Assembly (NCBI RefSeq): GCF_907163085.1
Contig: NZ_CAJQTX010000006.1
Span: 401,960 to 465,959, forward strand
Direction of reading: 5' to 3'
DNA from: Candidatus Accumulibacter sp. ACC003
GTDB taxonomy: Bacteria; Pseudomonadota; Gammaproteobacteria; Burkholderiales; Rhodocyclaceae
DNA length: 64,000 nt
The translations under genes were made by a program, and so were the position numbers. The notes beneath the pieces were generated by a model, which searched no databases, was not told the DNA's origin, and saw only the letters and a program-made list of their open reading frames with translations. Within the stretch, counting starts at the first letter, position 1, and the number at the start of each line of letters is the position of its first letter. This document shows positions 16,117-31,767 of this stretch, in pieces.

Positions 16117-16380
16117 GGTGCGCGATCTGACTCGCCTGACTGGCGGACACCGGGAGTTCGGCGAAGCTTGTTTCGCGAGTTGCTGCGGCTATGTCATCGG
16201 GACGGAAGTTGAAGTCGAAGCGCCTTGGCGCGGTCTTGATGGCGATCTCGAAGATGCTGGCCGCGCTGAAACAGACGTCGTTCTCAGGCCTGCTCAGGGC
16301 TTCGCACAGGTCGCTCGGCAGGTGTTCAACTTGATACAGTGACCAGATCACAGCACATGCGTATCGAGGAGGGCGTACTT
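16117..16380 (-). pseudogene. VapC-like toxin, copy 3, start lost, frameshifted and truncated
   Basis: Aligned with copy 1, the start codon is changed (ATG to AAG at 16380-16378), a CA dinucleotide is inserted near 16350 (CAGATCACAGCACATGCG against CAGATCAGCACATGCG in copy 2), shifting the frame after about ten codons, and the 3' third including DDPFDRLLIAQ is missing, the similarity ending near 16117. The remaining frame begins IWSLYQVEHLPSDL. No functional toxin can be made. Confidence 0.88.
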
Positions 16381-16665
16381 TCAGCGTTCACCTTTGCGCG
16401 ACCTAGCCGATTCTTCGGGAAAAATTGGCCCCTCGTAGAAGAGGTCGATCAGTTCGTCGGGCAATGGATCGTCGAAGCTCCCCGGCACATCAAGCTTGCC
16501 GGTCAGGATTCCGAGTACCCGCGGTTCCATCGTTGCCGTTGCCAACGGCACCAGGCGGCAAATCGGCTTGCCAGCTTTGGCAATGATGATTTCCTCGCCG
16601 GCGGCAGCCTCCTCGACCAAACGAGAAAGCTGGGCCTTGGCGGCATGAATGTTGACCGTTCGCAT
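16381..16665 (-). CDS. Phd/YefM-family antitoxin, copy 3
   Basis: 94 residues, opening MRTVNIHAAKAQLSRLVEEA and otherwise like copies 1 and 2. The ATG at 16665 is preferred: GGAGG lies 8 bases before it, a stronger ribosome site than in the other copies. It ends directly before the dead toxin copy 3. Confidence 0.88.
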   Translation of the reverse strand: MRTVNIHAAKAQLSRLVEEAAAGEEIIIAKAGKPICRLVPLATATMEPRVLGILTGKLDVPGSFDDPLPDELIDLFYEGPIFPEESARSRKGER

Positions 16666-17019
16666 GCGTATGTCCTCCAGGCAAGAAACCAACTTAGTCT
16701 GGTTGAAGCAATGGCGTTGTGGCGACTGTCGTGTATTCCGGTGGGCGGTTACGTGGGCTGCGGGTGACCCGCCGCGACGTCCGGGTCAGCGGCCCGCCGC
16801 TCTAACGAAACTCCACACTATCAAGAGTCAGCGGGCGTGCGTGACCCCTGTTACGTTCACATCTCACCGCTCAGGTCGCTGCCAAATTTCTGCGGATCTA
16901 CGCAACCGCCAATACTCTTCGGCCATGCGCATGCGGCGACATGCTAAGCTGCCGCGATCAAGGGGACATGGCTGTCACAGGCACGGTAACCCCGTAAGAA
17001 CCAGTCGAACTCAAGGTCC
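16666..17019. other. Spacer upstream of the sigma-factor operon
   Basis: Holds the antitoxin upstream flank and, at about 16765-16910, a stretch similar to 9659-9795 (3' end and downstream region of the ParD-like gene). The last 100 bases should carry the promoter of the defence operon, but I could not identify a convincing -35/-10 pair by eye. Confidence 0.5.
16765..16910. repeat. Relic duplicate of the parD downstream region
   Basis: Shares with 9659-9795 a run of matching blocks in the same order: GACCCGCCGCGA, CCGGGTCAGCG, ACTCTCCACCATCAAAA-like text, CCCCTGTT.CGTTCAC.TCTCA and GCCAAA.TTCTGCGG. The ParD coding part itself is not intact here. Indicates duplication of the cassette region. 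Confidence 0.65.
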
Positions 17020-19383
17020 GTGGATAACTTAAAGCCGCTTTTCAGGATGGCAGCGCTTGCTGGGGTCGGTGTGGCTGTGCGCCTGCACATCAGACGCGGT
17101 GACGACGTCAACGCCGTTGACGAGCGGGGGCGTACGCCACTCATGCTGGCAGCCTCGCGGGGCCACCTAGCCATTTGCCAGTTACTTCTCGATGCCGGTG
17201 CTGATCCGAGGGCCGTCGATGCAGAGATGAGCGATGCGCTTACGATGGCCAGAAACGCTGGTTTTCAGAAGGTCATTTCACTTCTCCAAGGGCATATTGT
17301 TGCCATGCAGCCGTTGAGTGGCGACCCACAAAAAAACGTTGCCATCACGTCGCTTCCAACCTTGACCGTTAACACGGATTCCGAGGATTTCGATCTCTCT
17401 GAATGGGTCGAGGAGACGGACACTCCACCCTCACCGCCTGACCACGAATATCTATTACGTGCCGCCGCGGTCCAGCACCAGATCGCGAGACATATTCCTA
17501 AGGATGTGGACGAAGACTGGTCAGAAATTGATCTTGACCTACCAAGCGCTCAAGAAACGCGCAGGCGCAGGAACGATCTTGATGACGATGCTTGTGCCGC
17601 GGTCAGGAAGTTGTTTCTTCTAGGGTTGCAAGAGGGGGGTATATCCGCAGACTGGGTCGTTGACGCCACCCTAAAGGAGAATGACGAGCCCGATGATGAA
17701 CTTGTGAGGCACATATTTCTTGTATTGGGTGACCTTGGTGCTGTCGTTTCTGAAGGAGAGTGGGGGTGGTCTATCGACGATATCCCAATCCGCCCTGCAG
17801 AAGAACTGGAGGATATGTCGAACAAGGCCCTCTTGACACTAAACAATTTCCTTCGCAATGACAGTGACCCGGAGCGCTTATATGTGCGCGAGATGTATCA
17901 AATTGCTCGGCTCACACCTGAAGGCGAGGTCGAGACCGCCAAGCGAATCGAGGACGGACAAAAGCAAATAATTCAGGCCATCTCGGCGTGTCCGACGACA
18001 ATCGCCGAAGTCCTAAATTGCGCCGACAAGATAGCTCGTGAGGAAGTGCGCATCGAGGAATTGATAGATGGGCTGATCTGTCACGATGGCGAGAGCGCCT
18101 TGGAGGAAGCGGGGGAGGGCGACGAAGACGACAACAGCGACGTGGCTGAAGGCGCAGGGGCAGCGGTCGCCCTGCTCAAGCTCAAGATCGAAGGACTCGA
18201 GCGCCTTGAGCTGATTCGTACCCGCCACAGCAAGGCGCAGGTGCTGTTGGCCAAAAAGGGCTTTCAGGACAAGGCCTATCTCCGGCTACAGGAACAGATC
18301 TCAGACGAGATGATGTGCATTCGTTTCACCTCGAAGACCATCAAAGGCCTGTGCGATACAGTGCGCGCCATGGTTGACGAAGTGCGCACCTGTGAGCGGC
18401 GGATCCAGAGAATCTGCGTTGACACGGTGCGCATGCCGCGCACGCACTTCATCAAGGTTTTCCCTGGCAACGAACTCAACCTCGACTGGGTGGAAAACCA
18501 AATCGCCACGGCAGGCAAGACCTACGCTGCGAGCCTTACGCGCAATGCCCCGAACATCACCGAGGAGCAACGGAAGCTGCTTGCCCTGCAGGACCGTATC
18601 GGCATCCCGCTGAAGGAACTGAAAGACATCAACAAGCAGATGTCTACCGGCGAAGCCAAGGCACGCCGCGCTAAACGAGAAATGACCGAGGCCAATCTGC
18701 GCCTAGTGATCTCGATCGCCAAAAAGTACGCCAACCGTGGCCTGCAGTTCCTAGATCTCATCCAGGAAGGGAATATCGGCCTGATGAAGGCTGTCGACAA
18801 GTTTGAATACCGCCGCGGCTACAGATTCTCGACCTACGCTACTTGGTGGATTCGGCAGGCCATCACCCGTTCGATTGCTGATCAGGCGCGGACGATCCGC
18901 ATCCCGGTACACATGATCGAAACGATCAACAAGATGAACCATATCTCCCGGCAAATCCTCCAGGAGACCGGTCTCGAAGCGGATCCGGCGACGCTGGCCA
19001 AGAAGATGGAGATGCCGGAAGAGAAGATCCGCAAGATCCTGAAGATCAGCAAGGAGCCGATTTCGATGGAAACGCCGATCGGCGACGACGACTTGTGCCT
19101 TGGAGATGCCGTCGAGGATAAGTCCGGCGCAGGCCCTTTCTCGCTCGATATCTACCGCAGCCTCCAGTATGTCGTGCGGGATGTTCTGGGCAGCTTGCCG
19201 CCACGTGAAGCCAAGGTGCTACGGCTGCGCTTCGGCATCGAGATGTATACCGACCATACATTGGACGAAATTGGTAAGCAATTCGATGTTACTCGAGAGC
19301 GCATTCGCCAAATCGAGGCTAAGGGCCTGCGAAGACTTCGTCATCCGTCACGTGCCGAAAGGCTGCGTCACTTCCTGGACTGA
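17020..19383 (+). CDS. RpoD-like sigma-70 factor with N-terminal ankyrin domain
   Basis: Sigma-70 paralogue of 787 residues, first gene of the defence operon. Residues 1-92 form ankyrin repeats ([33 protein letters not shown]). An acidic linker follows, then residues about 193-262 that resemble sigma region 1.1. Region 1.2 starts near 279 ([20 protein letters not shown]), a full RpoD-type non-conserved region spans about 313-545, region 2 lies at about 557-650 ([40 protein letters not shown]) and region 4.2 at about 747-787 ([20 protein letters not shown]). Regions 2.4 and 4.2 look like those of housekeeping RpoD, so ordinary -10/-35 promoters are probably recognised. The GTG at 17020 with weak AAGG is the most upstream start; a TAA at 16987 closes the frame. 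The next gene starts 3 bases after the stop. Codon use and GC are less extreme than in the urease or nar regions, suggesting transfer. Confidence 0.9.
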
Positions 19384-19386
19384 CTG

Positions 19387-20895
19387 ATGAAAACCCCATA
19401 TCGAACGCGACACGCGCCCCCCAAGGCTAGTTGCATGATCGAAGCCTTGCGCGGACTCGGCTACTCCACGGCAACTGCGCTAGCCGATGTTATCGATAAC
19501 AGTATTGCCGCGCGCGCGGACAGGGTAGATGTCCAGTTAAAGTGGAACGGGACGTCAAGCGTAATCACCGTGTTGGACAACGGTGAAGGCATGAACGCGC
19601 GCGATTTGGATCTCGCCATGCGTTTGGGTGAAAAAAACCCTTCCGACGAGCGGGCTGCCAATGATCTTGGTCGCTTTGGACTGGGGTTGAAGACAGCCTC
19701 GTTTTCTCAATGCCGTCGCCTGACGGTTGCCAGTCGGCAGGGGAGCGTTACCGACTGCCTGCAATGGGACCTTGATGTTTTGGCAGCCAGTGCTGACGGC
19801 GGGTGGCACCTGATTGAGGGCCCGGCAGACGGCTCTGAGGAGTTAATTTCACCACTGCTCTCACGCGATCAAGGAACCTTGGTACTTTGGGAAAAGCTCG
19901 ACCGGATCGTCACGGCCGGCTTCTGCGAACAGAATTTCCTTGATCTCATTGACGGTGTGGAACGGCACCTTGGGATGGTTTTTCACCGCTATCTTTCCGG
20001 ACCGGGAATGTGCTTGCGCCTACATATCAACGGGTGCCCTATCGTGGCTTGGGATCCCTTTTTAGCAGCACACGCGGCGACATGGTCGTCACCCGTCGAA
20101 CGTGTTTCTGGCGGATGTGGGGTTGTGGAAATGCAAGCTTACGTGCTTCCTCACAAGGATCGCCTAAATACCCGCGAGAGCGACTTGACAGCCGGTCTTG
20201 ACGGGTGGACTGCACAGCAGGGATTCTATGTTTATCGTAATCAACGTCTTTTGGTCGCGGGAAGCTGGCTCGGTCTGGGGCGTGCGCGTCCGTGGACTAA
20301 AGAGGAGGCGTATCGGCTTGCCCGAATTCGACTGGATATCCCGAATACATCGGATGCTGAATGGAAATTGGACATCCGCAAATCTAGGGCAAGGCCGCCA
20401 GTATATCTCCGGGAAAGACTCACGAGGCTTGCCGAAGACGCTCGCGAGCGAGCCCGTAGGGTTTTTGCACACAGAGGACAGGTTAATCGAGTGGCAAGCC
20501 ACCAACCACTCTTGCAGGCTTGGCGTGCCGAGCATTTCAGGGGAGGTATGCGATACCGAATCGATCCAGATCATCCAGCGATCAGTGCAGTACTTGACGA
20601 TGCGGGGACCATGGAAGGTGATATTCGGGCCATGCTTCGTGTAATCGAGGAAACGATTCCGGTGCAGCGAATCTGGCTCGATACAAGTGAAGCACGTGAA
20701 ACCCCACGTACCGGTTTTGCCGACGAGCCAGTCGAAGGAGTTGCCGTTGTCCTCCGTGTCCTGTTCAGGAACATGATCAAGCGCAAAGGCCTCTCGTCGA
20801 AGATGGCTCGCGAGCGACTGGCATGTACGGAGCCATTCAATAACTACCCCGGACTGGTGGCAGCCCTGCCAGATGATATCGACACACTGGAATGA
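19387..20895 (+). CDS. GHKL ATPase, MORC/MutL-like
   Basis: ATP-binding protein of 502 residues with the Bergerat fold. N-box region LADVIDNSIAA (N38), G1 box LDNGEGM (residues 63-69) and G2-like DLGRFGLGLKTAS (93-105) are clear. At the position where GHKL enzymes usually have the catalytic Glu there is Asp34 (D-V-I-D-N), which I understand occurs in this bacterial group. The rest resembles the S5-like and C-terminal parts of prokaryotic MORC-like proteins in restriction-type clusters. It probably clamps on DNA or switches conformation with ATP to license the nuclease components. It sits 3 bases after the sigma gene and 6 before the Z1 gene. Confidence 0.9.
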   Translation: MKTPYRTRHAPPKASCMIEALRGLGYSTATALADVIDNSIAARADRVDVQLKWNGTSSVITVLDNGEGMNARDLDLAMRLGEKNPSDERAANDLGRFGLGLKTASFSQCRRLTVASRQGSVTDCLQWDLDVLAASADGGWHLIEGPADGSEELISPLLSRDQGTLVLWEKLDRIVTAGFCEQNFLDLIDGVERHLGMVFHRYLSGPGMCLRLHINGCPIVAWDPFLAAHAATWSSPVERVSGGCGVVEMQAYVLPHKDRLNTRESDLTAGLDGWTAQQGFYVYRNQRLLVAGSWLGLGRARPWTKEEAYRLARIRLDIPNTSDAEWKLDIRKSRARPPVYLRERLTRLAEDARERARRVFAHRGQVNRVASHQPLLQAWRAEHFRGGMRYRIDPDHPAISAVLDDAGTMEGDIRAMLRVIEETIPVQRIWLDTSEARETPRTGFADEPVEGVAVVLRVLFRNMIKRKGLSSKMARERLACTEPFNNYPGLVAALPDDIDTLE

Positions 20896-20901
20896 CCTGA
20901 G

Positions 20902-23742
20902 ATGGCAGCAACTGCAGAGGAAAACCGCCGGAGAGTTGTCAAGTTCGTTCAAGAACTTCTGCTTGCAGAGGACGACAGATCCGCAGTGACACCGACTCTC
21001 ATCGCCGAGAAAATTGACTTGGTAGTAGTAATGCAACCGAAGTGGGGAGAGGGCCTCGACCGTGGGCTGGTGATCGAAGAACTGATCAGGCGCTTTAGCA
21101 TCTGGATCGGTCAAGACGCCACCTTGAAAAACAACGAGGGCCACCAACCGTGGCTAAACGCAACGAGAAAGCGCGAATGGCGCTACTGGCAGCGCTATCG
21201 AGAATTTCTTGAGCGGGAGATCTCTTGGAAAGCGGTCGAGGGCCTAGATGCGGCAACCGATGCTATCCTCGGAATGCTTGAGGATCCTGCCCGCAACGGT
21301 TCTTGGGACAGACGAGGATTGGTGGTGGGGCACGTGCAATCAGGCAAGACTGGTAACTACACGGGGCTGATCTGCAAAGCTGCAGACGCGGGCTACAAGA
21401 TCATCGTCGTGCTTGCTGGGCTTCACAACAACCTGCGTTCGCAGACTCAGATGAGACTCGATGAGGGATTTCTCGGATACGAGACTAAGCCAGTTGCAGA
21501 GGACATCAGAGTCATCGGTGTCGGGGAGATCGACGGTGACCCGGCCATCAGGCCGAACTTCGTGACAAATCGTTCAGAGAGCGGTGATTTCAGCACTGCC
21601 GCGGCAATGAACCTCGGTATCACGCCGGAGCAGAGGCCATTGCTGTTTGTTGTCAAGAAGAACAAGACGGTCTTGGAGCACCTCTACCGCTGGATACGCA
21701 ATCACGTAGCTAACCTACAGGATCCGAAGACGGGACGAAAAATCGTCACACATCTCCCCTTACTACTTATCGATGACGAGGCAGACCATGCTTCGGTCGA
21801 CACCGGCGAGCAAATCTTCGACTCCGATGGCAAGCCTGATGACGAGCATCAACCCACAGCGATAAACAGCTGTGTTCGTAAAATCTTGCACTCGTTTGCA
21901 AGGGTTGGTTATGTAGGCTATACGGCCACACCGTTTGCCAATATATTTATTCACGAACGGGGCGAAACAATCGAAGAAGGTCCAGACCTTTTCCCAGCCG
22001 CCTTTATTGTCAACCTCGCTGCTCCATCGAACTACGTGGGTCCCGCCAAGGTGTTTGGACTTGCCTCCTCGGAGGGGCGGATCGGTGGGTTGCCACTCCT
22101 GCGCGACATTGTGGATCATGTGTCGCCCGAGGGTGGAGGGTGGATGCCGCAGAAACACAGAAACGGCCACCACCCCCTCCATCAAGGGCATGACACCCTT
22201 CCCCCGTCTCTTGCGGAGGCAGTCGACTCGTTCCTTCTTGCGTGCGCCGCACGTCGTGTCCGTGGGCAAGGTGACGCCCACTCCTCGATGCTTGTGCATG
22301 TGACTCGGTTTAATTCGGTGCAAAGCGCAGTCTATCGGCAAGTCGCGGAACATGTGCGCTACCTAAGCCAGAGACTCCGCAGAAAGATCGACGACGGCCC
22401 CATTCTCTTGCGTCTCAAGGGGTTGTGGGACGACGATTTCTGCCATACGGCGCAGGCTGTCCCCGACTCACCCGGTTTGCCGAACTGGGATGAAGTGGAA
22501 GCAGAGCTGGCTGATGCCGCCGCTGATATCTCGGTGCGAATGATCAATGGTATGGCCAAAGATGCGCTCGATTATGTTGAAAATTCTGGGAAGGGCCTCA
22601 AGGTGATTGCCATCGGCGGCGACAAGCTCGCTCGTGGTTTGACGCTTGAGGGGCTATGCGTGAGCTATTTCCTGCGTGCGTCAAAGATGTACGACACGCT
22701 GATGCAGATGGGCCGATGGTTTGGGTATCGCCCAGGCTACTTGGATCTTTGCCGTCTCTACACAACTCCAGAACTCTCCAACTGGTTCTGTCACATCGCC
22801 GACGCGGCTGAGGAACTGAGGGAAGAGTTCGACCTCATGGCCGCAAGCGGCGCAACACCCAGAGAATATGGCCTCAAGGTGCAGTCGCATTCCGTTCTGA
22901 TGGTGACGTCGCGTCTCAAGATGCGTACCGCGAAAAACCTCATGCTCTCATTCAGTGGGCAGCTTCTAGAAACAGTATCCCTCCGCAGGAGTCGCCACGA
23001 CATCTCAAATAACCTTGAGGCAGCGCAAAGACTACTCAGGGCCCTTGGCAAACCAGACGAGATGGATCCAATAAGGATGATGGACGGAAAAGTCGACAAG
23101 TGGACGGGGTTCCTCTGGTCGGATGCAAGCGCATCGGCGATCTCGGACTTCTTCGCCGGCTACTCAACGCACCCGGCCGCTCTGAAGGTAAATAGCGCGA
23201 TGCTGGCGGAATTTATCGAATCAATGGCACGTATGGGCGAGCTAACCCGCTGGACTGTAGCGCTCGCGCGCAGTGGTTTGGGAGATGAGATCGAGCTGGT
23301 TCCCGGCGTGTGTCTCAGCATGAGCAAGCGCAGGGGCGAGAAGAAGTTCGACGATCGCTACGCGATAGGCCGGCTGCTGGACCCACGTGACGAAGCGGTA
23401 GACCTTGACGAAGCCCAGTGGAACGCGGCCCTTGCGGCGACACGGGCAGCACGAAAGACCGATCCGGCGAGGTCCTCGGACACGATGACCCCTGAGATTC
23501 CTAACGGTCCAGCAATTCGGAAGATTCGTGGCTTTGGGGCCAGTGGTATACCAGCGCGGCCGGACCGGGGCTTGCTTATCCTCTATGCGCTGGACCCGGC
23601 CAAAGCAGAGATTGATTTCCCGGAGGACACGCCACCCGTGATCGCTTTTGGCGTGAGTTTCCCAGGCAGCAATTCGGGGCTCAAGGTCGAATACAAGGTC
23701 AACAACGTGCTGTGGGAGCAGGAATATGGTCCTGCAGACTGA
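20902..23742 (+). CDS. Z1-domain helicase-like ATPase
   Basis: Large protein of 946 residues of the Z1 family (superfamily 2-like). Walker A is GHVQSGKTGNY near residue 147, then VVLAGLHNNLRSQTQ; Walker B is LLLIDDEADHAS near 288; VGYTATPFANIF near 337 corresponds to helicase motif III; GGDKLARGLTLEGL near 572 and LMQMGRWFGYRPGY near 602 to motifs V and VI. Expected to translocate on or remodel DNA as the motor of the system. It overlaps the next gene by 17 bases. Confidence 0.92.
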   Translation: MAATAEENRRRVVKFVQELLLAEDDRSAVTPTLIAEKIDLVVVMQPKWGEGLDRGLVIEELIRRFSIWIGQDATLKNNEGHQPWLNATRKREWRYWQRYREFLEREISWKAVEGLDAATDAILGMLEDPARNGSWDRRGLVVGHVQSGKTGNYTGLICKAADAGYKIIVVLAGLHNNLRSQTQMRLDEGFLGYETKPVAEDIRVIGVGEIDGDPAIRPNFVTNRSESGDFSTAAAMNLGITPEQRPLLFVVKKNKTVLEHLYRWIRNHVANLQDPKTGRKIVTHLPLLLIDDEADHASVDTGEQIFDSDGKPDDEHQPTAINSCVRKILHSFARVGYVGYTATPFANIFIHERGETIEEGPDLFPAAFIVNLAAPSNYVGPAKVFGLASSEGRIGGLPLLRDIVDHVSPEGGGWMPQKHRNGHHPLHQGHDTLPPSLAEAVDSFLLACAARRVRGQGDAHSSMLVHVTRFNSVQSAVYRQVAEHVRYLSQRLRRKIDDGPILLRLKGLWDDDFCHTAQAVPDSPGLPNWDEVEAELADAAADISVRMINGMAKDALDYVENSGKGLKVIAIGGDKLARGLTLEGLCVSYFLRASKMYDTLMQMGRWFGYRPGYLDLCRLYTTPELSNWFCHIADAAEELREEFDLMAASGATPREYGLKVQSHSVLMVTSRLKMRTAKNLMLSFSGQLLETVSLRRSRHDISNNLEAAQRLLRALGKPDEMDPIRMMDGKVDKWTGFLWSDASASAISDFFAGYSTHPAALKVNSAMLAEFIESMARMGELTRWTVALARSGLGDEIELVPGVCLSMSKRRGEKKFDDRYAIGRLLDPRDEAVDLDEAQWNAALAATRAARKTDPARSSDTMTPEIPNGPAIRKIRGFGASGIPARPDRGLLILYALDPAKAEIDFPEDTPPVIAFGVSFPGSNSGLKVEYKVNNVLWEQEYGPAD

Positions 23743-24745
23743 ACGGGACGAACTTCTTGCCGCCTGGAGTGCCCTCTCCGGCGATGCCGGGAGCAATGGA
23801 TGGCGCACCATCAGAGTTGCCTGCGGAGCGCCCTGCCCACTCTTCGCTGGACGTCGATTTCCGGGAAACGAGGAGGCGCTTCTGGTGGGGTTTGAGTCGG
23901 CGCGTGTTCCGCGCTCCGAGGAGCTTCCGCAGGGGAAGGGTTTCCTCGTCACACGAACAGATTTCGGCGGCTGCATCCCGGGTCTCACTTGGATCGCACT
24001 GATACGGCAAAGTCAGGGCCGACTGGATTTTTTTGCTTCGATGGCAGTCGACGTCGTTGCGATCTTGGCGGCAATGAAAGACCAGAATCGCGAGACGGTG
24101 GTCGATGCGTTCGTAGCCAGAATACGAGCGTGGCAGGAATTCATGCTCAGGGGTGATGACGGCCTGCTTCGCGCGGAGGCGGAATTGGGACTGTTTGGCG
24201 AGATAGAAATGCTGCTGGCGATATCTAGTGCTGGGCTCTGGCCGTCGTCGGCCGTCGATGCATGGCAAGGACCATTAGGCGGTATCCGGGATTTTTCTCT
24301 TGGTGCCGGTGCTATCGAGGTCAAGAGCACTTTGTCGCACGCTGGTTTTCCTGCGAAGGTAGGTTCCTTGGATCAACTTGACGATTCCGTGGTGCAACCG
24401 ATCTTTCTTGCGGGTGTCAGGCTCACCCTGTCCTCTGCTGGGCGGACTCTTCCCGAACTGGTCATGCGTCTACGCGCCACTCTTGGCGCCGACGGCGCGG
24501 TTTTGGCAGCGATTGACAGCAGACTAATTCATGCTGGGTTCGTTCACCAGGTGGCCTCAAGCTATACACGACGTTTCTCCGTCGTCGGAATCAAGTTGTT
24601 ATTGGTGGCCGGTAGTTTCCCGAGACTTACACAAGGCAACGTTCCGCCGGAAATCAGGGCGGCGCGCTACGACCTTGATCTCGATCTCGTCCACGGATGG
24701 GACACGACTATCGAGGGCGCACTCGAACGGCTTGGAGTGATTTAA
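23726..24745 (+). CDS. PD-(D/E)XK motif nuclease-like protein
   Basis: Protein of 339 residues, matching the family annotated as 'PD-(D/E)XK motif protein' found next to Z1 proteins. The candidate catalytic segment is RDF...GAGAIEVKS near residues 189-200, giving D then E-x-K with the usual spacing, with an upstream acidic residue in ELGLFGEIEM. The ATG at 23726 lies inside the Z1 gene and has GGAGCAGGA just upstream. It is probably the DNA-cleaving subunit; that is inferred from motif and context. One base separates it from the AIPR gene. Confidence 0.82.
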   Translation: MVLQTERDELLAAWSALSGDAGSNGWRTIRVACGAPCPLFAGRRFPGNEEALLVGFESARVPRSEELPQGKGFLVTRTDFGGCIPGLTWIALIRQSQGRLDFFASMAVDVVAILAAMKDQNRETVVDAFVARIRAWQEFMLRGDDGLLRAEAELGLFGEIEMLLAISSAGLWPSSAVDAWQGPLGGIRDFSLGAGAIEVKSTLSHAGFPAKVGSLDQLDDSVVQPIFLAGVRLTLSSAGRTLPELVMRLRATLGADGAVLAAIDSRLIHAGFVHQVASSYTRRFSVVGIKLLLVAGSFPRLTQGNVPPEIRAARYDLDLDLVHGWDTTIEGALERLGVI

Positions 24746-24746
24746 A

Positions 24747-26549
24747 ATGGAACTAGAAGAATTTCTTCGCCAGACGCAAGCCGAAGTGCTGGCCGAGATA
24801 GGAGAGAGGCTTGGCGCGGCAGGCGAGGCTTATCCCTATCCGGAGTCGGTTTTCGCCGAGATTGTAATGCAGCATATGTTCGAGATAGGGATGACGTTTG
24901 AACCAGTAGTGTGTCACTACGCTGCTAGGGTAGACAATGCCAATTTGCGGTTGAGTGGATTTGCTATATCCGATGATGCCGAACAGCTTGATCTTTTTGT
25001 TAGTCTTTATGACCAAGTTGGCAGTCTGACGCCGGTGGCAGACACAGACACCAAGAGAGCCGCACAACAATGTCTGCATTTTCTAGCTAAATGCGCTGAT
25101 GGCAGGCTGGCCAATACAATGGACGAATCCAACGATGCATACCTTCTCGCCGTAACCGTCCATGGTTGTTACGCTAAGCTGGACCAGATAAGGATCTACG
25201 TTTTAACCGATAGACAGGCTAGGGCCAAGAATTTCAAAGCACGGGAGATAGCTGGAAAAACAGTGAAGCTCGAGGTCATGGACATCGAGCGTCTTCACAG
25301 ACACTGGTCAGCGGGAAAGCCACGCGACGAACTGGTTGTGAATTTCGAGGAAATGGAATACGGGCCTCTGCCTTGCGTGTATGTTCCTGGCGAGATGGCT
25401 GACTACGACTATGCCTTGACCGCTATTCCAGCAGAAGCGCTGCGCTTGGTCTATGAGAAATATGGCGCACGACTACTCGAAGCCAATGTTCGGTCGTTTC
25501 TCAGCGCCGCCGGCAAGGTTAACAGGGGGATCCGTGACACCCTGCGGGATAACCCAGAGCGCTTCATGGCGTACAACAACGGCATCGTTGTTGTAGCCGA
25601 TGAAATTGTTCTTGGCAAAACCGCTGATGGCGGCCCCGGCATTCTCTGGCTAAAAGGTATGCAAATCGTCAACGGCGGCCAGACAACCGCTTCTATATAT
25701 TTTTCCAAGAAACGAACTCCGGAGATAGATTTACGATACGTGAGGGTGCCGGCCAAAATTATAGTCCTGCGGGCATGCAATACCGAGAGCGAGGAAACAC
25801 TTGTCTGCGATATTTCTCGGTACGCAAATACGCAAAACTCGGTGCGGCAGTCCGACCTGTCAGCAAACAAGCCCTTCCACGTCGAGGTCGACAAACTCGC
25901 ATCAACGACGTACTGCCCCGATGGCGTTGGGCGCTGGTTCTACGAACGTGCTACAGGTAGCTACAACACCATGCTTGCCCGTGAGGGGACGACGCCGGCA
26001 CGTCTAAGGCGTCTCAAGGAAGTGGTGATACCCCCGTCAAGGAAGATCATCAAGACGGATCTGGCGAAGTACATCAGCGCATGGGATCAGAAACCCGATC
26101 GAGTCAGTCTTGGCGCACAGAAGAACTTCGAGCGCTTCATGGAGGAGTACAGGGAGCAGGAAGGACAAGCGCCGGCTCCACTGCCCGACGTTGCCGCCTA
26201 CAAGACTATGATCGCCAAGGCTATTCTTTTCAAGAAGACCCACGCCTTGGTGCGGCCCATGTTTCCGGCTTTTCAGGGAAACGTTGTTGTATATCTGATT
26301 TCTCTCTTTGCGGAGCGCCTTGGCAACAGGATGGATTTTGACAAAATATGGATTCTTCAAGACATCTCCCCCAGTCTTCGACGGCATCTCAGGACTTGGG
26401 CGACAGAAGTTCATAGCGTGTTGCAGAACTCCGCGGACGGGCGAATGATTTCAGAGTGGGCCAAGAAGCCGGAGTGTTGGGTGGCTGTGCGATCCGCTTT
26501 ATATTCAGGCGTACCCGACGACATCCCAGAGTTGGTTCGGTATCGATGA
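24747..26549 (+). CDS. AIPR-family (abortive phage resistance) protein
   Basis: 600 residues, AIPR family, originally named from lactococcal abortive infection proteins. Diagnostic segments are NVRSFLSAAGKVNRGIRDTL near residue 247, RFMAYNNGIVVVADE, and GMQIVNGGQTTASIYF near 304, followed by ISRYANTQNSVRQSDL. The biochemical role in these clusters is not firmly known to me; DNA binding or nuclease-related activity is predicted. One base separates it from the previous gene, while 76 non-coding bases follow before the methyltransferase. Confidence 0.92.
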   Translation: MELEEFLRQTQAEVLAEIGERLGAAGEAYPYPESVFAEIVMQHMFEIGMTFEPVVCHYAARVDNANLRLSGFAISDDAEQLDLFVSLYDQVGSLTPVADTDTKRAAQQCLHFLAKCADGRLANTMDESNDAYLLAVTVHGCYAKLDQIRIYVLTDRQARAKNFKAREIAGKTVKLEVMDIERLHRHWSAGKPRDELVVNFEEMEYGPLPCVYVPGEMADYDYALTAIPAEALRLVYEKYGARLLEANVRSFLSAAGKVNRGIRDTLRDNPERFMAYNNGIVVVADEIVLGKTADGGPGILWLKGMQIVNGGQTTASIYFSKKRTPEIDLRYVRVPAKIIVLRACNTESEETLVCDISRYANTQNSVRQSDLSANKPFHVEVDKLASTTYCPDGVGRWFYERATGSYNTMLAREGTTPARLRRLKEVVIPPSRKIIKTDLAKYISAWDQKPDRVSLGAQKNFERFMEEYREQEGQAPAPLPDVAAYKTMIAKAILFKKTHALVRPMFPAFQGNVVVYLISLFAERLGNRMDFDKIWILQDISPSLRRHLRTWATEVHSVLQNSADGRMISEWAKKPECWVAVRSALYSGVPDDIPELVRYR

Positions 26550-26625
26550 TCGATGCGCAAGAGGAGATTAGATCGGTGCGCGTAGGCAATCACCGCCTTG
26601 AGTGCGGTGGCAGTATTCTTTCATC

Positions 26626-28212
26626 GTGATACACGTCATTGATCTTTTCGCAGGCCCTGGGGGGCTTGGCGAGGGCTTCGGCTCACTTCGTGACAGCACC
26701 GATGAAGCAGTGTTCGATATTCGTTCGTCGTTCGAAAAGGAGCCGGTGGCCTATCGCACCCTCTCTCTGCGGGCCTTCTACAGGGCTTTTGGCCATCCGA
26801 GTGATGTGCCCGGCGAGTACTACCAATACCTGCGCAACAGAATTTCCCGGGAAGATCTGTTGGGAAATCCTCGTTTTCGTGATCAGGCCAGCAGGGCGCT
26901 TGAAGAGGCGCATTGCGTTGAACTCGGCATCACGCCAGCCGAGGAGGTCGACCAGAAGATAGCGCACGCCCTCCGGGGCAATATGCCGTGGGTACTGATT
27001 GGCGGCCCGCCCTGCCAGGTCTACTCGGTGGTTGGGCGGGCTCGCTGGCGTCGAGACAATGTCGAGAAATTTGAAGGCGACCATCGGCATTTTCTCTACA
27101 AGGAGTATCTTCGGATCATCCAGAAGTTTCAGCCTGCCGTCTTCGTGATGGAGAATGTCCGGGGAGTACTGTCGTCGACACATGGCGGCACCCCGATCTT
27201 CAACAGAATCCTGGACGACCTCTCAAACCCTTCTCCGGGGCTCCACTACGAAATTCGTTCGTTCAATTGCGCCGGTGATGCGCGGACCGCGAACCCCATG
27301 AACTTTGTGGTTCAGTCCGAGAACCATGGCCTGCCACAAGCCCGTCACCGGGTGATGCTCCTTGGTGTTCGTGAAGATATCCGGGCCCGGCAGCATCAGG
27401 TGCTCGCAAGAACAGGTTCGGTGTCGGTTAACCAAGCAATTCATGATTTGCCTCGTGTCCGGAGTCTCCTCTCACGCGGCAAGGATTCCGCCGAAAGCTG
27501 GCAAACCATCTTTGACGAGCTGTTGGCAGTGCTGTCCAGAACGGCGCCAGGAACCCTGAGCTTCGTGAACCAGGAGCTCGAACTGTCCATGGCGGGCCGA
27601 GCGATACCGGCAAGCGCCGGGGGGCGCTATATGCGTGGCCTCGAAGCCAGAGCTGACCGGCTGCCTCCAAGCTTGAGAGAGTGGTTACGTGACGAACGCC
27701 TGGAGGGGTATATCCAGCATGAGGCCCGCGCCCACATGCGGGCCGATCTGCACCGTTATCTTTATAGTGCTTGTTTCGCCAAGCGGCACCGCCGCTCGCC
27801 AAAGGTTGATGAGTTTCCTCGAGAGTTGCTGCCCCAACACGCGAATGTGCATTCCGAGAAGGTGCCATTTCGTGACCGCTTCCGGGTACAGCTCGAAAAT
27901 GGGCCATCGACCACCGTGGTATCCCACATTTCAAAGGATGGTCACTACTACATTCACTACGATCCTGCCCAGTGCCGCAGTCTTACCGTTCGAGAGGCTG
28001 CGCGTTTGCAGACGTTTCCTGACAACTATTTTTTCGAGGGTAACCGTACGGAGCAATATTGGCAGGTTGGCAATGCCGTTCCGCCGTTTCTCGCCAGGCA
28101 GGTTGCAGGCATCGTAGCCGAGCTTCTTCAGGGCGGCGAACAGACCGCTGAACGAGCGGGCGAAGGAAGTCCGACCGTCGCCGTGGAGCCTCTCGCCAAG
28201 TTGCCAGCATGA
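26626..28212 (+). CDS. DNA (cytosine-5) methyltransferase
   Basis: C5-cytosine methylase of 528 residues. Motif I is VIDLFAGPGGLGEGF at the N-terminus, the catalytic Cys is in GGPPCQVYSVVG near residue 129, motif VI is ENVRG near 177, motif VIII is QARHRVMLLG near 239, and motifs IX/X read LTVREAARLQTFPDNYF and YWQVGNAVPP. A long insertion between motifs I and IV is unusual for short solo methylases. The GTG at 26626 (MIHVIDLF) is preferred to the GTG at 26602, since the family normally begins just before motif I; the ribosome site is weak. The 76-base gap before it may hold a separate promoter so methylation can precede restriction. The stop overlaps vsr. Confidence 0.93.
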   Translation: MIHVIDLFAGPGGLGEGFGSLRDSTDEAVFDIRSSFEKEPVAYRTLSLRAFYRAFGHPSDVPGEYYQYLRNRISREDLLGNPRFRDQASRALEEAHCVELGITPAEEVDQKIAHALRGNMPWVLIGGPPCQVYSVVGRARWRRDNVEKFEGDHRHFLYKEYLRIIQKFQPAVFVMENVRGVLSSTHGGTPIFNRILDDLSNPSPGLHYEIRSFNCAGDARTANPMNFVVQSENHGLPQARHRVMLLGVREDIRARQHQVLARTGSVSVNQAIHDLPRVRSLLSRGKDSAESWQTIFDELLAVLSRTAPGTLSFVNQELELSMAGRAIPASAGGRYMRGLEARADRLPPSLREWLRDERLEGYIQHEARAHMRADLHRYLYSACFAKRHRRSPKVDEFPRELLPQHANVHSEKVPFRDRFRVQLENGPSTTVVSHISKDGHYYIHYDPAQCRSLTVREAARLQTFPDNYFFEGNRTEQYWQVGNAVPPFLARQVAGIVAELLQGGEQTAERAGEGSPTVAVEPLAKLPA

Positions 28213-28724
28213 TGGATGTGGTGGATCCGGCGACACGTTCCCGCATGATGTCGGGTATCAGGGGCAAGAACACGCGCCCGGAAATGCTGGTACGGAAATT
28301 CCTGCACGGGCACGGCTTTCGTTACCGGCTGCACTCAAAGAGCCTGCCAGGAAGTCCGGACATCGTGATGCGGAAGTGGAAGGTTGCCGTTTTGGTGCAC
28401 GGCTGCTTCTGGCATCGTCATGAAGGCTGCAGATTTAGCACCACACCAGGCAGCAACGTTGGACACTGGCAGAGCAGGTTTGAGGAAAACACCGTGCGTG
28501 ATCGACGGAACGTCTGCGAGCTTGTAGCCAGAGGGTGGAGAGTTATCATTCTGTGGGAATGCGGTTTGAGAGAGGTTAAGGCGGGCAAGCTAAACCTCCT
28601 GTGGCTGCTCGACAGCATCAGGACTGCAAACTGTGCCGGCCGCCTATTGGAATGGCCCCAAGCAGAAGGTAAACTTGGACCCGAGCACCATTCCACCATT
28701 TCGACGGTCGGTTTGTTGACCTGA
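28209..28724 (+). CDS. vsr: Very short patch repair endonuclease Vsr
   Basis: Vsr-type mismatch endonuclease of 171 residues. It nicks at T:G mismatches that arise when 5-methylcytosine deaminates. The catalytic Asp is D51 in LPGSPDIVM, followed by VLVHGCFWHRHEGC with zinc and catalytic histidines (H64, H69, H71). It overlaps the methyltransferase stop by four bases, the usual pairing, which independently supports C5 methylation by the neighbour. Confidence 0.95.
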   Translation: MMDVVDPATRSRMMSGIRGKNTRPEMLVRKFLHGHGFRYRLHSKSLPGSPDIVMRKWKVAVLVHGCFWHRHEGCRFSTTPGSNVGHWQSRFEENTVRDRRNVCELVARGWRVIILWECGLREVKAGKLNLLWLLDSIRTANCAGRLLEWPQAEGKLGPEHHSTISTVGLLT

Positions 28725-28737
28725 AGGAGGAGTAGCC

Positions 28738-29043
28738 ATGGCGACGCAGACAAATGAAGGCCAGGACAGAATCGAGACGATGGCGTTCGAATTCAGTGTA
28801 AATCTGAAGAGATGGCTGTCGCACAAGCAGATGAAGAAGGTGGTTTCCCGGAACAAGCACGAGGACGAGCCAAACATCTGTCACAGTCATGATTTCTGCG
28901 ATGCAAACATGGCACTGCACGATGTGTTCATGAAGCATGGGATGGATGTGACGGCTGAAGGGGGTGTCACTCGTCATGGTCAGGAATGGCATGATGTCTG
29001 GCAACTGGCCAAGCGGAAGCGCTTCTGGTTCCGGCCAAAGTAG
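28738..29043 (+). CDS. Small uncharacterised protein at operon end
   Basis: 101 residues with a strong AAGGAGG ribosome site, 13 bases after vsr, so a real last gene of the operon. The sequence is rich in His, Lys and Asp with a striking ICHSHDFCDANMALHDVF segment (two Cys, two His) that could bind a metal, and a basic aromatic end (KRKRFWFRPK). I do not recognise a family with a known function. It could be an inhibitor, a DNA- or metal-binding cofactor, or an unrelated cargo gene. Confidence 0.75.
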   Translation: MATQTNEGQDRIETMAFEFSVNLKRWLSHKQMKKVVSRNKHEDEPNICHSHDFCDANMALHDVFMKHGMDVTAEGGVTRHGQEWHDVWQLAKRKRFWFRPK

Positions 29044-29189
29044 GGTGAGCGGACTCCTCTGAAGTCGAACTGGAAGGCCTTCGTTCGCGAAACGGCTGCC
29101 GCCGACAACAGCGCCCGCTTCCCCCAAACTACTACCCAGCAACTCCCCGCAGCCGCGCTTCCTCCTCGCGCCTTGCCTTCCCGCCAACC

Positions 29190-29588
29190 CTACAGCCAGT
29201 TCTCCATGGCCTTCGCGTCAACGCACTCTTCATCCGTCGTCACCACCGGTACTGCCTTCGCACGCTTGATCACTTCGCGCACCACGTCGGGTGACAGGAG
29301 ATTGGCGATACGCGCGTGTGGCAGCGGGAAAACGATTGCTTTGCAGCCGAGCTGCTCGGCGATGTCGCCTTCGCGGTAGTTCTCCTGGTAGGAAACGCCG
29401 GCCGCGGTCAGTGTTTGCACGGCATCGTGCAGGATGTCGGCCAAGGCCTGCGCCACTGCGCCGGTGATCGCCAGTTCGCTGCCGATGCCGACGACCATGA
29501 AGCCAAGCTGCTGGTTCATAAGTTCGCTGGCTATCGACGCGACGGCAATCTGATGGTGGTCGGGGCAAGCGGAAGCAGTTGACCCCAC
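29190..29588 (-). pseudogene. Chimeric relic: antiporter fragment fused to UspA C-terminus
   Basis: The first part reads LMNQQLGFMVVGIGSELAIT, which is a piece of a NuoL/MrpD-type antiporter (compare IVNQVGFMVVGIGIGTEMAL in the gene at 31820-33502). From about residue 50 it switches to a UspA C-terminal half, DILHDAVQTLTAAGVSYQEN ... KAVPVVTT, matching the intact UspA gene at 31258-31767. The UspA N-terminal half with the start of the nucleotide fold is missing. This looks like a deletion or recombination product of a second copy of the antiporter-uspA locus. Confidence 0.8.
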
Positions 29589-29683
29589 ACGTGACGCCGT
29601 TTTAAGGTGGCGACGAACCCGAATGCTCCGTGTTGAAAGATCGCCAGCTACCCACGACGACAGTCAGAATAACCGAGGGAATA

Positions 29684-31135
29684 ATGACCATGCTTTCGTC
29701 CCTGCTCGTTCGCCCGCTGCTGTTGCTGTCGCCGGCTCTGGCATGGGCCTCCGCAGGGGGTGGCGAGCGCCTTGACCTGACCGCGCACTGGGTCGGTTTT
29801 GCCGCCCTGGCCTTGTTTGGCCTCGCCTACGCACTGGTGATGGCGGAGGAGGTCACGCATCTACGCAAGTCGAAACCCGTGATCCTGGCCGCTGGCATCA
29901 TCTGGGCCCTGATCGGCAGCGTTTATACCGCCCACGGCATGAACCATGCGACAGAAATGGCGGTGCGGCATAATCTTCTCGAATACGCCGAGCTGATGCT
30001 GTTCCTGCTGGTCGCAATGACCTACATCAATGCCATGAGCGAGCGCAATGTCTTCGAGGCCCTGCGCTCGTGGCTGATCAAGAAGGGCTACGGACTGCGG
30101 AAACTGTTCTGGATAACGGGCGTGCTGGCGTTTTTCATCTCTCCGGTCGCCGATAACCTGACCACCGCGCTGCTGATGTGCGCGGTGGTCATGGCGGTCG
30201 GCGGCGAAAATGCCAGGTTCGTCCTGCTCGCCTGCATCAATATCGTCGTGGCGGCAAACGCCGGTGGCGCCTTTAGTCCCTTTGGCGACATCACGACGCT
30301 GATGGTCTGGCAGAAAGAGATCCAGACGCCGCAGGGTGTGGTGGGCTTCGGCTCCTTCTTTGCCCTGTTCATTCCCGCGCTGGTCAACTGGCTGCTACCG
30401 GCGGCCATTATGTCGACCAGGGTTCCGAACGTACAACCCCTCGGTGGCGGTGCGGCAGTGGTGATGAAACGCGGTGCCAAACGCATCATTGCCCTGTTCC
30501 TGCTGACTATCGCGACAGCCATCGGCTACCACAACTTCATAAATCTGCCACCGGTCATCGGCATGCTGACCGGCCTGGCCTATCTGCAGTTCTTCGGCTA
30601 TTACCTGAAGAAAACCGTGCACTTTGAGTACGGCATGAGCAGGCGTCGGTTCCGGACCGAGATCAGGAACGACGACAGCATGGGCAGCCTGCCGGCATTC
30701 AACGTCTTCGACAAGATTGCCCGGGCCGAGTGGGATACCTTGCTTTTTTTCTACGGCGTGGTGTTATGCGTCGGCGGCCTCGGTTTCATCGGCTACCTGG
30801 CGATGGCCTCCGAGCTGATGTATGGCGACTGGGGTGCGACCAGGGCCAATATCGCGATCGGCATCCTGTCGGCGATCGTCGACAACATCCCGGTGATGTT
30901 CGCCGTGCTGACCATGCTGCCGGAGATGTCGATGGGGCACTGGCTGCTGGTCACGCTTACCGCGGGGGTGGGCGGTTCCCTGATGTCAATCGGTTCGGCC
31001 GCAGGGGTGGCTTTGATGGGGCAGGCGCGCGGCAAGTACACCTTCTTCGGCCACCTCAAATGGGCGCCGGTCATCGCGCTCGGCTACGCTGCCAGCATCG
31101 CCACGCACCTGTGGATCAATAATGCGATGTTCTAG
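29684..31135 (+). CDS. nhaD: NhaD-type Na+/H+ antiporter
   Basis: Polytopic inner-membrane sodium/proton antiporter of the NhaD family, 483 residues from the ATG at 29684, chosen because GAGGGA lies 5 bases upstream. A signal-like first helix (SSLLVRPLLLLSPALAWASA) is followed by about twelve more helices. Typical segments are FFISPVADNLTTALLMCAVV, NAGGAFSPFGDITTLMVW and GILSAIVDNIPVMFAVL, which carry the conserved ion-site Asp, Asn and Thr residues. It stands alone on the plus strand between two uspA-like sequences and opposite the Mrp-type operon. Confidence 0.92.
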   Translation: MTMLSSLLVRPLLLLSPALAWASAGGGERLDLTAHWVGFAALALFGLAYALVMAEEVTHLRKSKPVILAAGIIWALIGSVYTAHGMNHATEMAVRHNLLEYAELMLFLLVAMTYINAMSERNVFEALRSWLIKKGYGLRKLFWITGVLAFFISPVADNLTTALLMCAVVMAVGGENARFVLLACINIVVAANAGGAFSPFGDITTLMVWQKEIQTPQGVVGFGSFFALFIPALVNWLLPAAIMSTRVPNVQPLGGGAAVVMKRGAKRIIALFLLTIATAIGYHNFINLPPVIGMLTGLAYLQFFGYYLKKTVHFEYGMSRRRFRTEIRNDDSMGSLPAFNVFDKIARAEWDTLLFFYGVVLCVGGLGFIGYLAMASELMYGDWGATRANIAIGILSAIVDNIPVMFAVLTMLPEMSMGHWLLVTLTAGVGGSLMSIGSAAGVALMGQARGKYTFFGHLKWAPVIALGYAASIATHLWINNAMF

Positions 31136-31257: not shown

Positions 31258-31767
31258 CTACAGCCAGTTGTTCTCAGCCTTCTCGGCAATGCCTGCCGCA
31301 TCCGTCGTCACCACCGGCACGGCCTTCGCGCGCTTGATCACTTCGCGGACCACGTCGCGCGAGAGGAGTTTGGCGATCCGCGCGTGCGGCAGCGGCAGAA
31401 TGATCGCCTGGCAGCCGAGTTGTTCGGCGACGTCGCCGATCTGCTCGACGATGTCGCCTTCGCGGTAGATCTTCTGGCAGGACACGCCTGCCGCGGTCAG
31501 CGCTTGCGCGGCATCGTGCAGGATGTGCGCGCCGCATTCGGCCTGGAAGCGGGCGATCTCGACGTGCGTACGAAAACGCAGCACTTCCGGCGCGGTGACC
31601 GCTTCCGAGACGAATAGCAGCGCGACCTGCACCGGCTGGCCGCTGCGCTGCAGACGCATGGCGTAGCGAATTCCCCAGCGCGAGCGTTCGGTCGGGTCGA
31701 CCGGGATGAGCAGCCGCTTGGCGCGTGCGCCTTGCGCAAGCGGTTGATAGGCAAGGGGCTGGCTCAT
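31258..31767 (-). CDS. Universal stress protein (UspA family)
   Basis: Cytoplasmic UspA-fold protein of 169 residues. The ATG at 31767 has AAGGAGG just upstream. AKRLLIPVDPTERSRWGIRY is the first strand and helix; the C-terminal part LGCQAIILPLPHARIAKLLS with VVREVIKRAKAVPVVTT is the usual end strand. A clear G-2x-G-9x-G(S/T) ATP motif is not seen, so ATP binding is uncertain. It is the last gene of the minus-strand antiporter operon and probably cotranscribed with it. Confidence 0.88.
   Translation of the reverse strand: MSQPLAYQPLAQGARAKRLLIPVDPTERSRWGIRYAMRLQRSGQPVQVALLFVSEAVTAPEVLRFRTHVEIARFQAECGAHILHDAAQALTAAGVSCQKIYREGDIVEQIGDVAEQLGCQAIILPLPHARIAKLLSRDVVREVIKRAKAVPVVTTDAAGIAEKAENNWL

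What the first reader, a model, noticed from the sequence alone, without database searches (positions are those of the whole stretch)
17020..29043. Eight-gene defence-type operon headed by an ankyrin-fused RpoD-like sigma factor
Seen: eight same-strand genes, with most junctions 3-13 bases or overlapping (only AIPR to methylase has a 76-base gap), encoding an ankyrin/sigma-70 protein, GHKL ATPase, Z1 ATPase, PD-(D/E)XK protein, AIPR protein, C5-methyltransferase, Vsr and a small protein. Known: MORC-like GHKL, Z1, REase-like, AIPR and methylase genes were linked by comparative genomics as a restriction-type system. Inferred: a transcription initiation factor has become a regular component. Possibilities are a private sigma that keeps host or defence promoters active when a phage seizes RNA polymerase, a sensor for phage anti-sigma proteins through the ankyrin domain, or dedicated transcription of the operon.
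Basis: partly seen in the sequence, partly recalled or inferred. Interest (0 to 1): 0.88.

Follow-up and report, generated by a model that had tools for sequence, protein, structure and literature searches.

The report
MZA defence operon with host-derived sigma
This is a divergent copy of the known MZA anti-phage system, whose sigma-factor gene joins an ankyrin head to a second half that closely matches the bacterium's own main sigma factor; related systems appear to have picked up their hosts' sigma in the same way several times.

Summary
The eight genes are present as described. The new part is the origin of the sigma half. Residues 281-787 of the window's MzaA are 80% identical to the host's own RpoD (rank 1 of 112 RpoDs) and pair with it at 100/100 support, whereas the ankyrin-linker-sigma1.1 head follows MzaB/C/E. 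At least five MzaA lineages carry sigma halves from their host lineages; a single origin is rejected (AU p=0.001), and Ca. Nitrotoga shows a recent gene-conversion tract. Most MzaA (54 of 62 testable) are not best matched by their own host's RpoD. Across diverged MzaA the -35 and several -10 contact residues persist, while the sigma finger is eroded, also in captured tails. I read MzaA as a host-sigma impersonator that docks the MzaB-E machinery at RNA polymerase on housekeeping-type promoters; that function is inferred. A private promoter class is disfavoured. Nothing here tests phage defence.

The parts
17020..19383 (+). mzaA: chimeric ankyrin/sigma-70 protein (787 aa, GTG start)
   Evidence: AlphaFold model mean pLDDT 87.1, pTM 0.64; top Foldseek hits are E. 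coli sigma70 chains
17035..17304 (+). head, part 1: three ankyrin repeats (aa 6-95)
   Evidence: Pfam Ank_2 11-89; Ank_2 in 56 of 61 MzaA scanned
17305..17574 (+). head, part 2: MzaA-specific linker (aa 96-185); family consensus has WExE and DWxD...LP motifs
   Evidence: family consensus; no profile match to RpoD 1.1
17587..17829 (+). head, part 3: sigma 1.1-like domain (aa 190-270), 22% identical to host RpoD 1.1
   Evidence: profile match to RpoD 1.1, probability 92-94%
17860..19380 (+). tail: sigma 1.2-4.2 (aa 281-787), host-RpoD-derived, 80% identical to host RpoD
18826..18912 (+). sigma 2.3-2.4 promoter -10 contacts (aa 603-631)
19060..19113 (+). sigma finger 3.2 (aa 681-698), altered against host RpoD (0.74 identity; regions 2 and 3.0-3.1 0.98)
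19291..19323 (+). -35 recognition helix [11 protein letters not shown] (aa 758-768)
   Evidence: R759, E760, R763, Q764 kept in 68 of 68 other MzaA
19387..20895 (+). mzaB: GHKL (MutL/MORC-like) ATPase
   Evidence: (E 1.6e-195)
20902..23742 (+). [not shown]
23726..24745 (+). mzaD: DUF4420 PD-(D/E)XK protein
24747..26549 (+). mzaE: AIPR protein
   Evidence: (E 1.6e-234)
26602..28212 (+). C5-cytosine DNA methyltransferase, accessory (start may be 26626)
   Evidence: a similar MTase and/or Vsr ORF on the same strand in 36 of 44 roomy loci
28209..28724 (+). Vsr-family endonuclease, accessory; overlaps the methylase gene by 4 bases
   Evidence: Vsr right after mzaE in 18 of 80 loci
28738..29043 (+). 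small orphan protein, 101 aa
   Evidence: no Pfam or NCBIfam family; weak PADLOC hit, E 0.0084; hits at 35-39% on 4 plasmid records

Best explanation
The locus is a divergent MZA anti-phage system (mzaABCDE) with an accessory C5 methylase and Vsr. Shown: MzaA is a two-part protein. Its head (ankyrin repeats, linker, sigma1.1-like domain) belongs to the MZA system and evolves with MzaB/C/E. Its tail (sigma 1.2-4.2) is derived from the host's own RpoD, and equivalent tails came from host-lineage RpoD independently in at least five MzaA lineages, in one case with a recent gene-conversion tract. Inferred: the tail is kept like the host's housekeeping sigma because MzaA loads on host RNA polymerase and reads housekeeping-type promoters, which are also the early promoters of many phages (recalled). 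The eroded sigma finger suggests it marks or holds initiation complexes rather than supporting normal initiation. The head then couples such complexes to the MzaB/MzaC ATPases and the MzaD/MzaE effectors, with methylation as a possible self mark. Rough probabilities: MZA identity 0.95, host-RpoD capture 0.9, promoter or polymerase docking as the function 0.4.
For: Identity: PADLOC MzaA-E, E 4e-57 or lower for each, gene order, RefSeq-named E. coli mzaA with a homologous ankyrin head. Chimera: identity to own RpoD 22% in 1.1, then 60/72/96/97/85/80% from 1.2 to 4; own RpoD ranks 1 of 112. Independent captures: a tree of sigma 1.2-4 with 10 MzaA and 32 of the 115 RpoDs held needs 7 label changes, all forced by starred branches: window with own RpoD 100/100, L032 with own 99/99, L109 with a Rhodocyclales RpoD 99/98, L055/L057 in one clade with their two own RpoDs and one more 100/99, L038/L042/L043 in one clade with two Competibacteraceae RpoDs 100/100. 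AU test rejects one clade of the ten (dlnL 365, p 0.00095) and of window+L109+L032 (dlnL 98, p 1.5e-50). Conversion: L057 mzaA is 100% identical in DNA to its own rpoD over 40 codons, next best RpoD 71%; 96.7% over window aa 430-550 with 47/55 fourfold sites. Among the ten, head identity follows MzaB/C/E (r 0.87), tail identity less (r 0.51); on the MzaB+C+E tree RpoD-like tails need six label changes, at least four forced (quick tree). Function: in 59 diverged MzaA -35 contacts kept 0.96, -10/-12 contacts 0.75, mean of RpoD-invariant positions 0.56, finger 0.26. In ten RpoD-like tails the finger is 0.16-0.74 identical to the nearest-host RpoD (eight own, two a relative's) against 0.92 between RpoDs, region 2 is 0.77-0.99 against 0.97. 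Two MzaA carry inserted GcrA-type repeats.
Against: Own RpoD is the best match in only 8 of 62 testable MzaA (0.56 expected), so capture is not the general state; in L055, L043 and L042 a relative's RpoD scores slightly above their own at protein level (ranks 2, 2, 3 of 112). Core-contact positions are kept less well in diverged MzaA (0.47) than in RpoS (0.68) or RpoH (0.62), although D403/Q406 are kept: this speaks against strong core binding. RpoH also keeps the -35 helix (0.85) and has a low finger score (0.20), RpoS 0.43, so these signs do not prove promoter docking or loss of initiation. In captured tails regions 3.0-3.1 (0.37-0.98, baseline 0.76) and 4.1-4.2 (0.71-0.90, baseline 0.93) diverge too, and much acidic character of the finger remains. 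-10 contacts Y425, K426 and T440 are mostly lost in diverged MzaA (0.26, 0.40, 0.36). Five Pseudomonas-type loci have MzaB-E without an adjacent sigma. The ten RpoD-like MzaA were picked after the first tree. L109's own genome was not held. Residue classes are recalled, not computed from structures.
Confidence: 0.45

Rival explanations
1. Integrated decoy: MzaA's tail is bait that imitates the host sigma so that phage anti-sigma or RNA-polymerase-modifying proteins bind it and trigger the head and MzaB-E. Recapture keeps the bait up to date with the host.
Against: In diverged MzaA many of the best-kept residues are those that read DNA, which bait does not obviously need; most MzaA are not host-matched; no phage partner was tested.
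Confidence: 0.25
2. Working stand-in sigma: MzaA restores transcription of host or defence genes when a phage disables RpoD, or transcribes the mza operon itself.
For: Region 2, region 3.0-3.1 and the -35 helix of the window's tail are nearly host RpoD.
Against: The finger lies below the RpoD-RpoD mean in all ten RpoD-like tails compared, and the 3.2-4.1 linker in nine of ten; no sigma-70-like match at 16600-17020; residues argue against a private promoter class.
Confidence: 0.15
3. Neutral recombination: rpoD and mzaA are similar enough for ectopic gene conversion; rpoD is essential so only rpoD-to-mzaA events survive, and the host match has no functional meaning.
For: The tracts include the most conserved region; only a minority of MzaA is affected.
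Against: Host match extends over 1.2-4 including the fast-evolving non-essential region (NER 72% to own RpoD in the window, 78% over 324-550 in L057). Identity to own RpoD steps up from 1.1 (12-22%) to 1.2 (30-70%) in all eight pairs compared, as if the head were kept; no breakpoint program was run.
Confidence: 0.2

Closest known systems
MZA system mzaABCDE (Gao et al. 2020, Science, not held, recalled and cited in PMC9523054; NCBIfam NF041931-NF041935; PADLOC MzaA-E)
   Same: Five genes in the same order and families; E. coli mzaA named by RefSeq has a homologous ankyrin head and a sigma tail.
   Different: All five window proteins score below the NCBI equivalog cut-offs (593/800, 797/850, 1359/1500, 370/420, 987/1050); the sigma tail is host-RpoD-derived, while the three E. 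coli MzaA compared have diverged tails, best RpoD hit about 50% over the last 240-265 residues; methylase and Vsr follow.
Prokaryotic MORC/paraMORC restriction-type operons (Iyer, Abhiman and Aravind 2008, PMC2292703; passages read)
   Same: GHKL ATPase with helicase, RE-fold nuclease, AIPR, cytosine methylase and Vsr genes.
   Different: 'sigma' and 'ankyrin' do not occur in the main text of that paper.
[not shown]
   Different: That paper gives about 20% identity to mzaBCDE and says mzaA is present only in a few of them.
Housekeeping sigma factor RpoD
   Same: Regions 1.2-4.2, 80% identity to the host's RpoD.
   Different: Ankyrin head, diverged 1.1 domain, altered finger, defence-operon setting.

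Membership tests
MZA anti-phage system | Genes mzaA-E adjacent, same strand, in this order | tested here: met
MZA anti-phage system | Each protein matches its PADLOC Mza model | tested here: met
   MzaA 3.1e-83 (best stretch 417-668 of 683), MzaB 1.6e-195, MzaC 0, MzaD 4e-57, MzaE 1.6e-234; PADLOC's own system rules were not run
MZA anti-phage system | NCBIfam equivalog cut-offs for MzaA-E | tested here: not met
   all five below cut-off; the window's MzaA scores higher with an RpoD equivalog (724, cut-off 555). These cut-offs serve to name proteins, so I file it as a divergent variant, not as the equivalog
MZA anti-phage system | MzaA has an ankyrin head plus sigma-70 tail | tested here: met
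   (Ank_2 in 56 of 61; r2 and r4 in 61 of 61)
MZA anti-phage system | Protects against phage | not testable with these tools
Housekeeping-type sigma-70 factor | Regions 1.2, 2, 3, 4 present | tested here: met
Housekeeping-type sigma-70 factor | -35 and -10 contact residues kept | tested here: met
   ten RpoD-like MzaA (window included) -35 1.00, -10 0.96; per position
Housekeeping-type sigma-70 factor | Conserved sigma finger 3.2 | tested here: inconclusive
   window 0.74 against 0.92 between RpoDs, one residue shorter, acidic residues partly kept
Housekeeping-type sigma-70 factor | Binds core RNA polymerase and starts transcription | not testable with these tools
   needs biochemistry
Type II restriction-modification with Vsr | C5 methylase with matching restriction endonuclease | tested here: inconclusive
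   Methylase and Vsr families found; specificity and a cognate endonuclease unknown

The most novel reading that the evidence does not exclude
MZA is an immune system aimed at transcription initiation. Its MzaA subunit impersonates the host's housekeeping sigma, and in several lineages the impersonating half has been re-taken from the host lineage's rpoD (at least five captures, plus gene conversion caught in Ca. Nitrotoga), after which the sigma finger decays. It would bring ATPase/nuclease machinery to RNA polymerase at phage early promoters.
Probability: 0.35. Interest if true: 0.87.

Novelty: new variant of a known kind. Interest (0 to 1): 0.64.

Why it matters
No mechanism for MZA, or role for its sigma factor, turned up in the papers reached here (searches; passages naming MZA read in six papers; one of them tables Mza under nuclease activity). 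Showing that a mobile defence operon re-equips itself with the host's own sigma tells experimenters which half of MzaA is the system's (the head) and which is the host interface (the tail). It gives a clean test: tail swaps, finger changes, contact-residue changes. It is also a bacterial parallel to host-derived integrated modules in plant immune receptors (recalled).

Tried and rejected
Single-origin MzaA with some slow-evolving members: rejected by the AU tests and by host-lineage pairing. Host match as a general rule: rejected, own RpoD best in 8 of 62 only. In 40-codon DNA windows own RpoD is clearly first in L057 and the window, first by a small margin in L038, L055 and L035, and tied in L106, L070 and L090. 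First tree on regions 2-4 alone left placements open; adding 1.2 and NER resolved them. L080 with its own RpoD is weak (84/41) and L037 is a long branch: neither is counted among the five. Phage-borne MzaA: 0 of 273 phage records with a match cover 80% of MzaA; the one hit opened, H32, is a host rpoD operon next to a P2-like prophage. Promoter upstream of the operon: no match at 16600-17020, and the total for 16600-29700 equals the shuffles (5 found, 5.4 expected). Rfam: one match in the window, outside the operon. The 101-aa protein was left as an orphan.

Rows dropped: of 80 MzaC loci six (L033, L071, L074, L082, L083, L091) end before the upstream gene (L082 keeps a 57-aa sigma fragment); L110 has another ORF there. 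Of 69 MzaA, L063, L064, L107 and L109 had no own RpoD, and L036, L097, L098 had too little overlap, leaving 62. L042's and L048's own RpoD loci are cut short; L042 and L109 were held against a relative's RpoD. For the tree I took 32 of the 115 RpoDs. For the Pfam count eight of 69 MzaA were left out for size (L036, L039, L044, L067, L088, L090, L097, L108). MzaA starts were taken as the first start codon, so some N-termini are too long; L036, L042 and L044 are cut by contig ends and the L039 ORF used lacks the head. The RpoS control has 7 rows; the RpoH alignment may be imperfect.
Full report

Identity. PADLOC matches genes 1-5 to MzaA-MzaE. NCBIfam gives the same five names ('MZA anti-phage system associated sigma-70 family RNA polymerase sigma factor MzaA' and so on), but all five fall below the equivalog cut-offs and MzaA scores better with an RpoD model (724 against 593 bits). 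The system is that of Gao et al. 2020 (paper not held); PMC9523054 (passage read) describes mzaA as a sigma factor and says it is present in only a few of its related systems. Three RefSeq-annotated E. coli mzaA genes have a homologous ankyrin head. So the ankyrin-sigma layout and its regular presence are properties of known MzaA, although I found no paper that discusses the layout (searches; passages naming MZA read).

How regular. The upstream gene could be read in 74; a sigma ORF lies directly upstream of MzaB in 68, a C5 methylase in 5 Pseudomonas-type loci (L051, L056, L061, L062, L065), another ORF in L110. In a phylum-wide sample the MzaC family occurs at E 1e-20 or better in 20 of 398 genomes, the window's own included, none over the curated cut-off. 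MzaC relatives occur in 38 plasmid records, and the two opened carry the whole A-E row. A similar methylase and/or Vsr ORF lies on the same strand in 36 of 44 roomy loci (16 methylase, 24 Vsr, 4 both); some may belong to neighbouring systems. Of 61 MzaA scanned (of 69), 61 match sigma regions 2 and 4, 56 Ank_2 and 14 the NER.

A chimera. The window's MzaA has a head (ankyrin 6-95, linker 96-185, sigma1.1-like 190-270) and a tail (281-787). Against the host's own RpoD the identities are 22% in 1.1, 60% in 1.2, 72% in NER, 96% for 501-556, 97% in region 2, 85% in region 3, 80% in region 4; own RpoD is the best of 112 RpoDs (80%) and best in DNA over 281-787 (79.4%, next 71.7%). In region 4 alone (706-787) own RpoD ranks 13 of 113 in DNA, so the match is uneven. 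The 1.1-like domain is homologous to RpoD 1.1 by profile (probability 92-94%) but highly diverged. The structure model is confident (mean pLDDT 87.1, pTM 0.64); its top solved matches are E. coli sigma70 chains by fold and RpoD chains by sequence.

Independent captures. A tree of regions 2-4 put ten of 69 MzaA inside the RpoD clade (98/88). A tree of 1.2-4.2 with these ten and 32 of the 115 RpoDs held needs seven label changes, all forced by starred branches: window with own RpoD (100/100), L032 Pusillimonas with own (99/99), L109 Azonexaceae with a Rhodocyclales RpoD (99/98; own genome not held), L055/L057 Gallionellaceae in one clade with their two own RpoDs and one more (100/99), L038/L042/L043 Competibacteraceae in one clade with the RpoDs of L038 and L043 (100/100). 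L080 with own RpoD is weak (84/41), L037 unplaced. One clade is rejected for all ten (p 0.00095) and for window+L109+L032 (p 1.5e-50); the groups were chosen after the trees were seen. Ca. Nitrotoga (L057) shows a recent conversion: 100% DNA identity to its own rpoD over 40 codons where the next RpoD has 71%, 96.7% over window aa 430-550 with 47 of 55 fourfold sites, falling to about 71% upstream and 82-85% downstream; its sister L055 is 45-52% identical to its own RpoD in protein over window aa 428-548.

Head and tail have different histories. On the MzaB+C+E tree (quick method) RpoD-like tails need six label changes, at least four forced; L109 (RpoD-like tail) is the sister of L105 (diverged tail) at 100. 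Among the ten, head identity follows MzaB/C/E (r 0.87) more closely than tail identity does (r 0.51); among diverged MzaA both follow (0.89, 0.90). Against the reading: own RpoD is best in only 8 of 62 testable MzaA (0.56 expected), rank 5 or better in 18 (2.8 expected), and in L055, L043 and L042 a relative's RpoD is slightly ahead of their own in protein. Capture is repeated, not universal.

What the tail keeps. E. coli positions and contact classes are recalled. In 68 MzaA R584, E585, R588 and Q589 are kept in all, Q437 in 66, R441 in 67, W434 in 66, D403 and Q406 in 67 each. In 59 diverged MzaA -35 contacts average 0.96 and -10/-12 contacts 0.75, RpoD-invariant positions 0.56, core contacts 0.52, the finger 0.26. 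In a joint alignment with controls (-35 / -10 / core / finger): diverged MzaA 0.96/0.73/0.47/0.14, RpoS (7) 0.78/0.69/0.68/0.43, RpoH (25) 0.85/0.25/0.62/0.20. The weaker core contacts speak against strong polymerase binding. In the ten RpoD-like tails the finger is 0.16-0.74 identical to the RpoD compared (eight own, two a relative's), against 0.92 between RpoDs, while region 2 stays 0.77-0.99 (0.97); regions 3.0-3.1 (0.37-0.98 against 0.76) and 4.1-4.2 (0.71-0.90 against 0.93) diverge too, and acidic residues of the finger often remain. Two MzaA (L085 Pararhodobacter, L108 Sedimentimonas) carry two GcrA-like repeats between ankyrin and sigma parts (seen by eye; GcrA profile E 3.3e-43 in one scanned member); GcrA as a sigma70-binding, methylation-sensitive promoter factor is recalled.

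Mechanism. Residues that recognise housekeeping promoters and two core anchors persist, the finger decays, the tail is replaced by the host's own sigma in several lineages, and the head follows the ATPase/nuclease genes. My inference is a host-sigma impersonator that docks the MZA machinery at RNA polymerase on housekeeping-type promoters. A decoy for phage anti-sigma proteins is the main rival; neutral conversion and a stand-in sigma are others. No step of function is shown here.

Verdict. What is new, as far as the named searches show, is repeated capture of host RpoD by a defence operon.

Noticed in passing
window 14146-14667 and 16235-16755: A toxin-antitoxin-like cassette (PIN-type and Phd-type ORF pieces by eye) is present twice upstream of the operon, pieces 87-91% identical, spacing about 2090 bases.
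   Followed up: partly
window 29190-29437 and 31258-31526: A fragment that looks usp-like by eye is duplicated around an ORF that looks like an NhaD-type antiporter, just downstream of the operon (82-89% identical).
   Followed up: partly
window 5932-6218, minus strand: Rfam 5' ureB sRNA (RF02514, 121 bits, gathering 40) antisense within the urease genes.
   Followed up: no
L085 and L108, MzaA N-terminal half: Two GcrA-type helix-turn-helix repeats inserted between the ankyrin and sigma parts of MzaA.
   Followed up: partly
L051, L056, L061, L062, L065 (Pseudomonas-type loci): MzaB-E without a sigma ORF; a C5 methylase takes its place directly upstream of MzaB.
   Followed up: partly
L096 (Pseudomonas sp. 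GM50), MzaA: Ankyrin part nearest to L059/L060 (0.74), but the whole head (L102, 0.58) and MzaB/C/E (L089, L090; 0.90) nearest to an alphaproteobacterial group: a possible swap of the ankyrin part.
   Followed up: partly
L197, L198, L199, L227, L228: Five MZA-carrying genomes (two Duganella, Massilia, Janthinobacterium and a Burkholderiaceae MAG) hold a second full RpoD (876-882 bits).
   Followed up: no
L293 and L295 (E. coli), between mzaA and mzaC: mzaB appears interrupted by an IS4-like IS421 element in two of the three E. coli MZA loci looked at.
   Followed up: no
window 28738-29043: 101-aa protein with relatives at 35-39% identity on four Burkholderiales plasmid records (all that one search found there), and at 46-55% near two MZA loci, L054 and L064.
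   Followed up: partly
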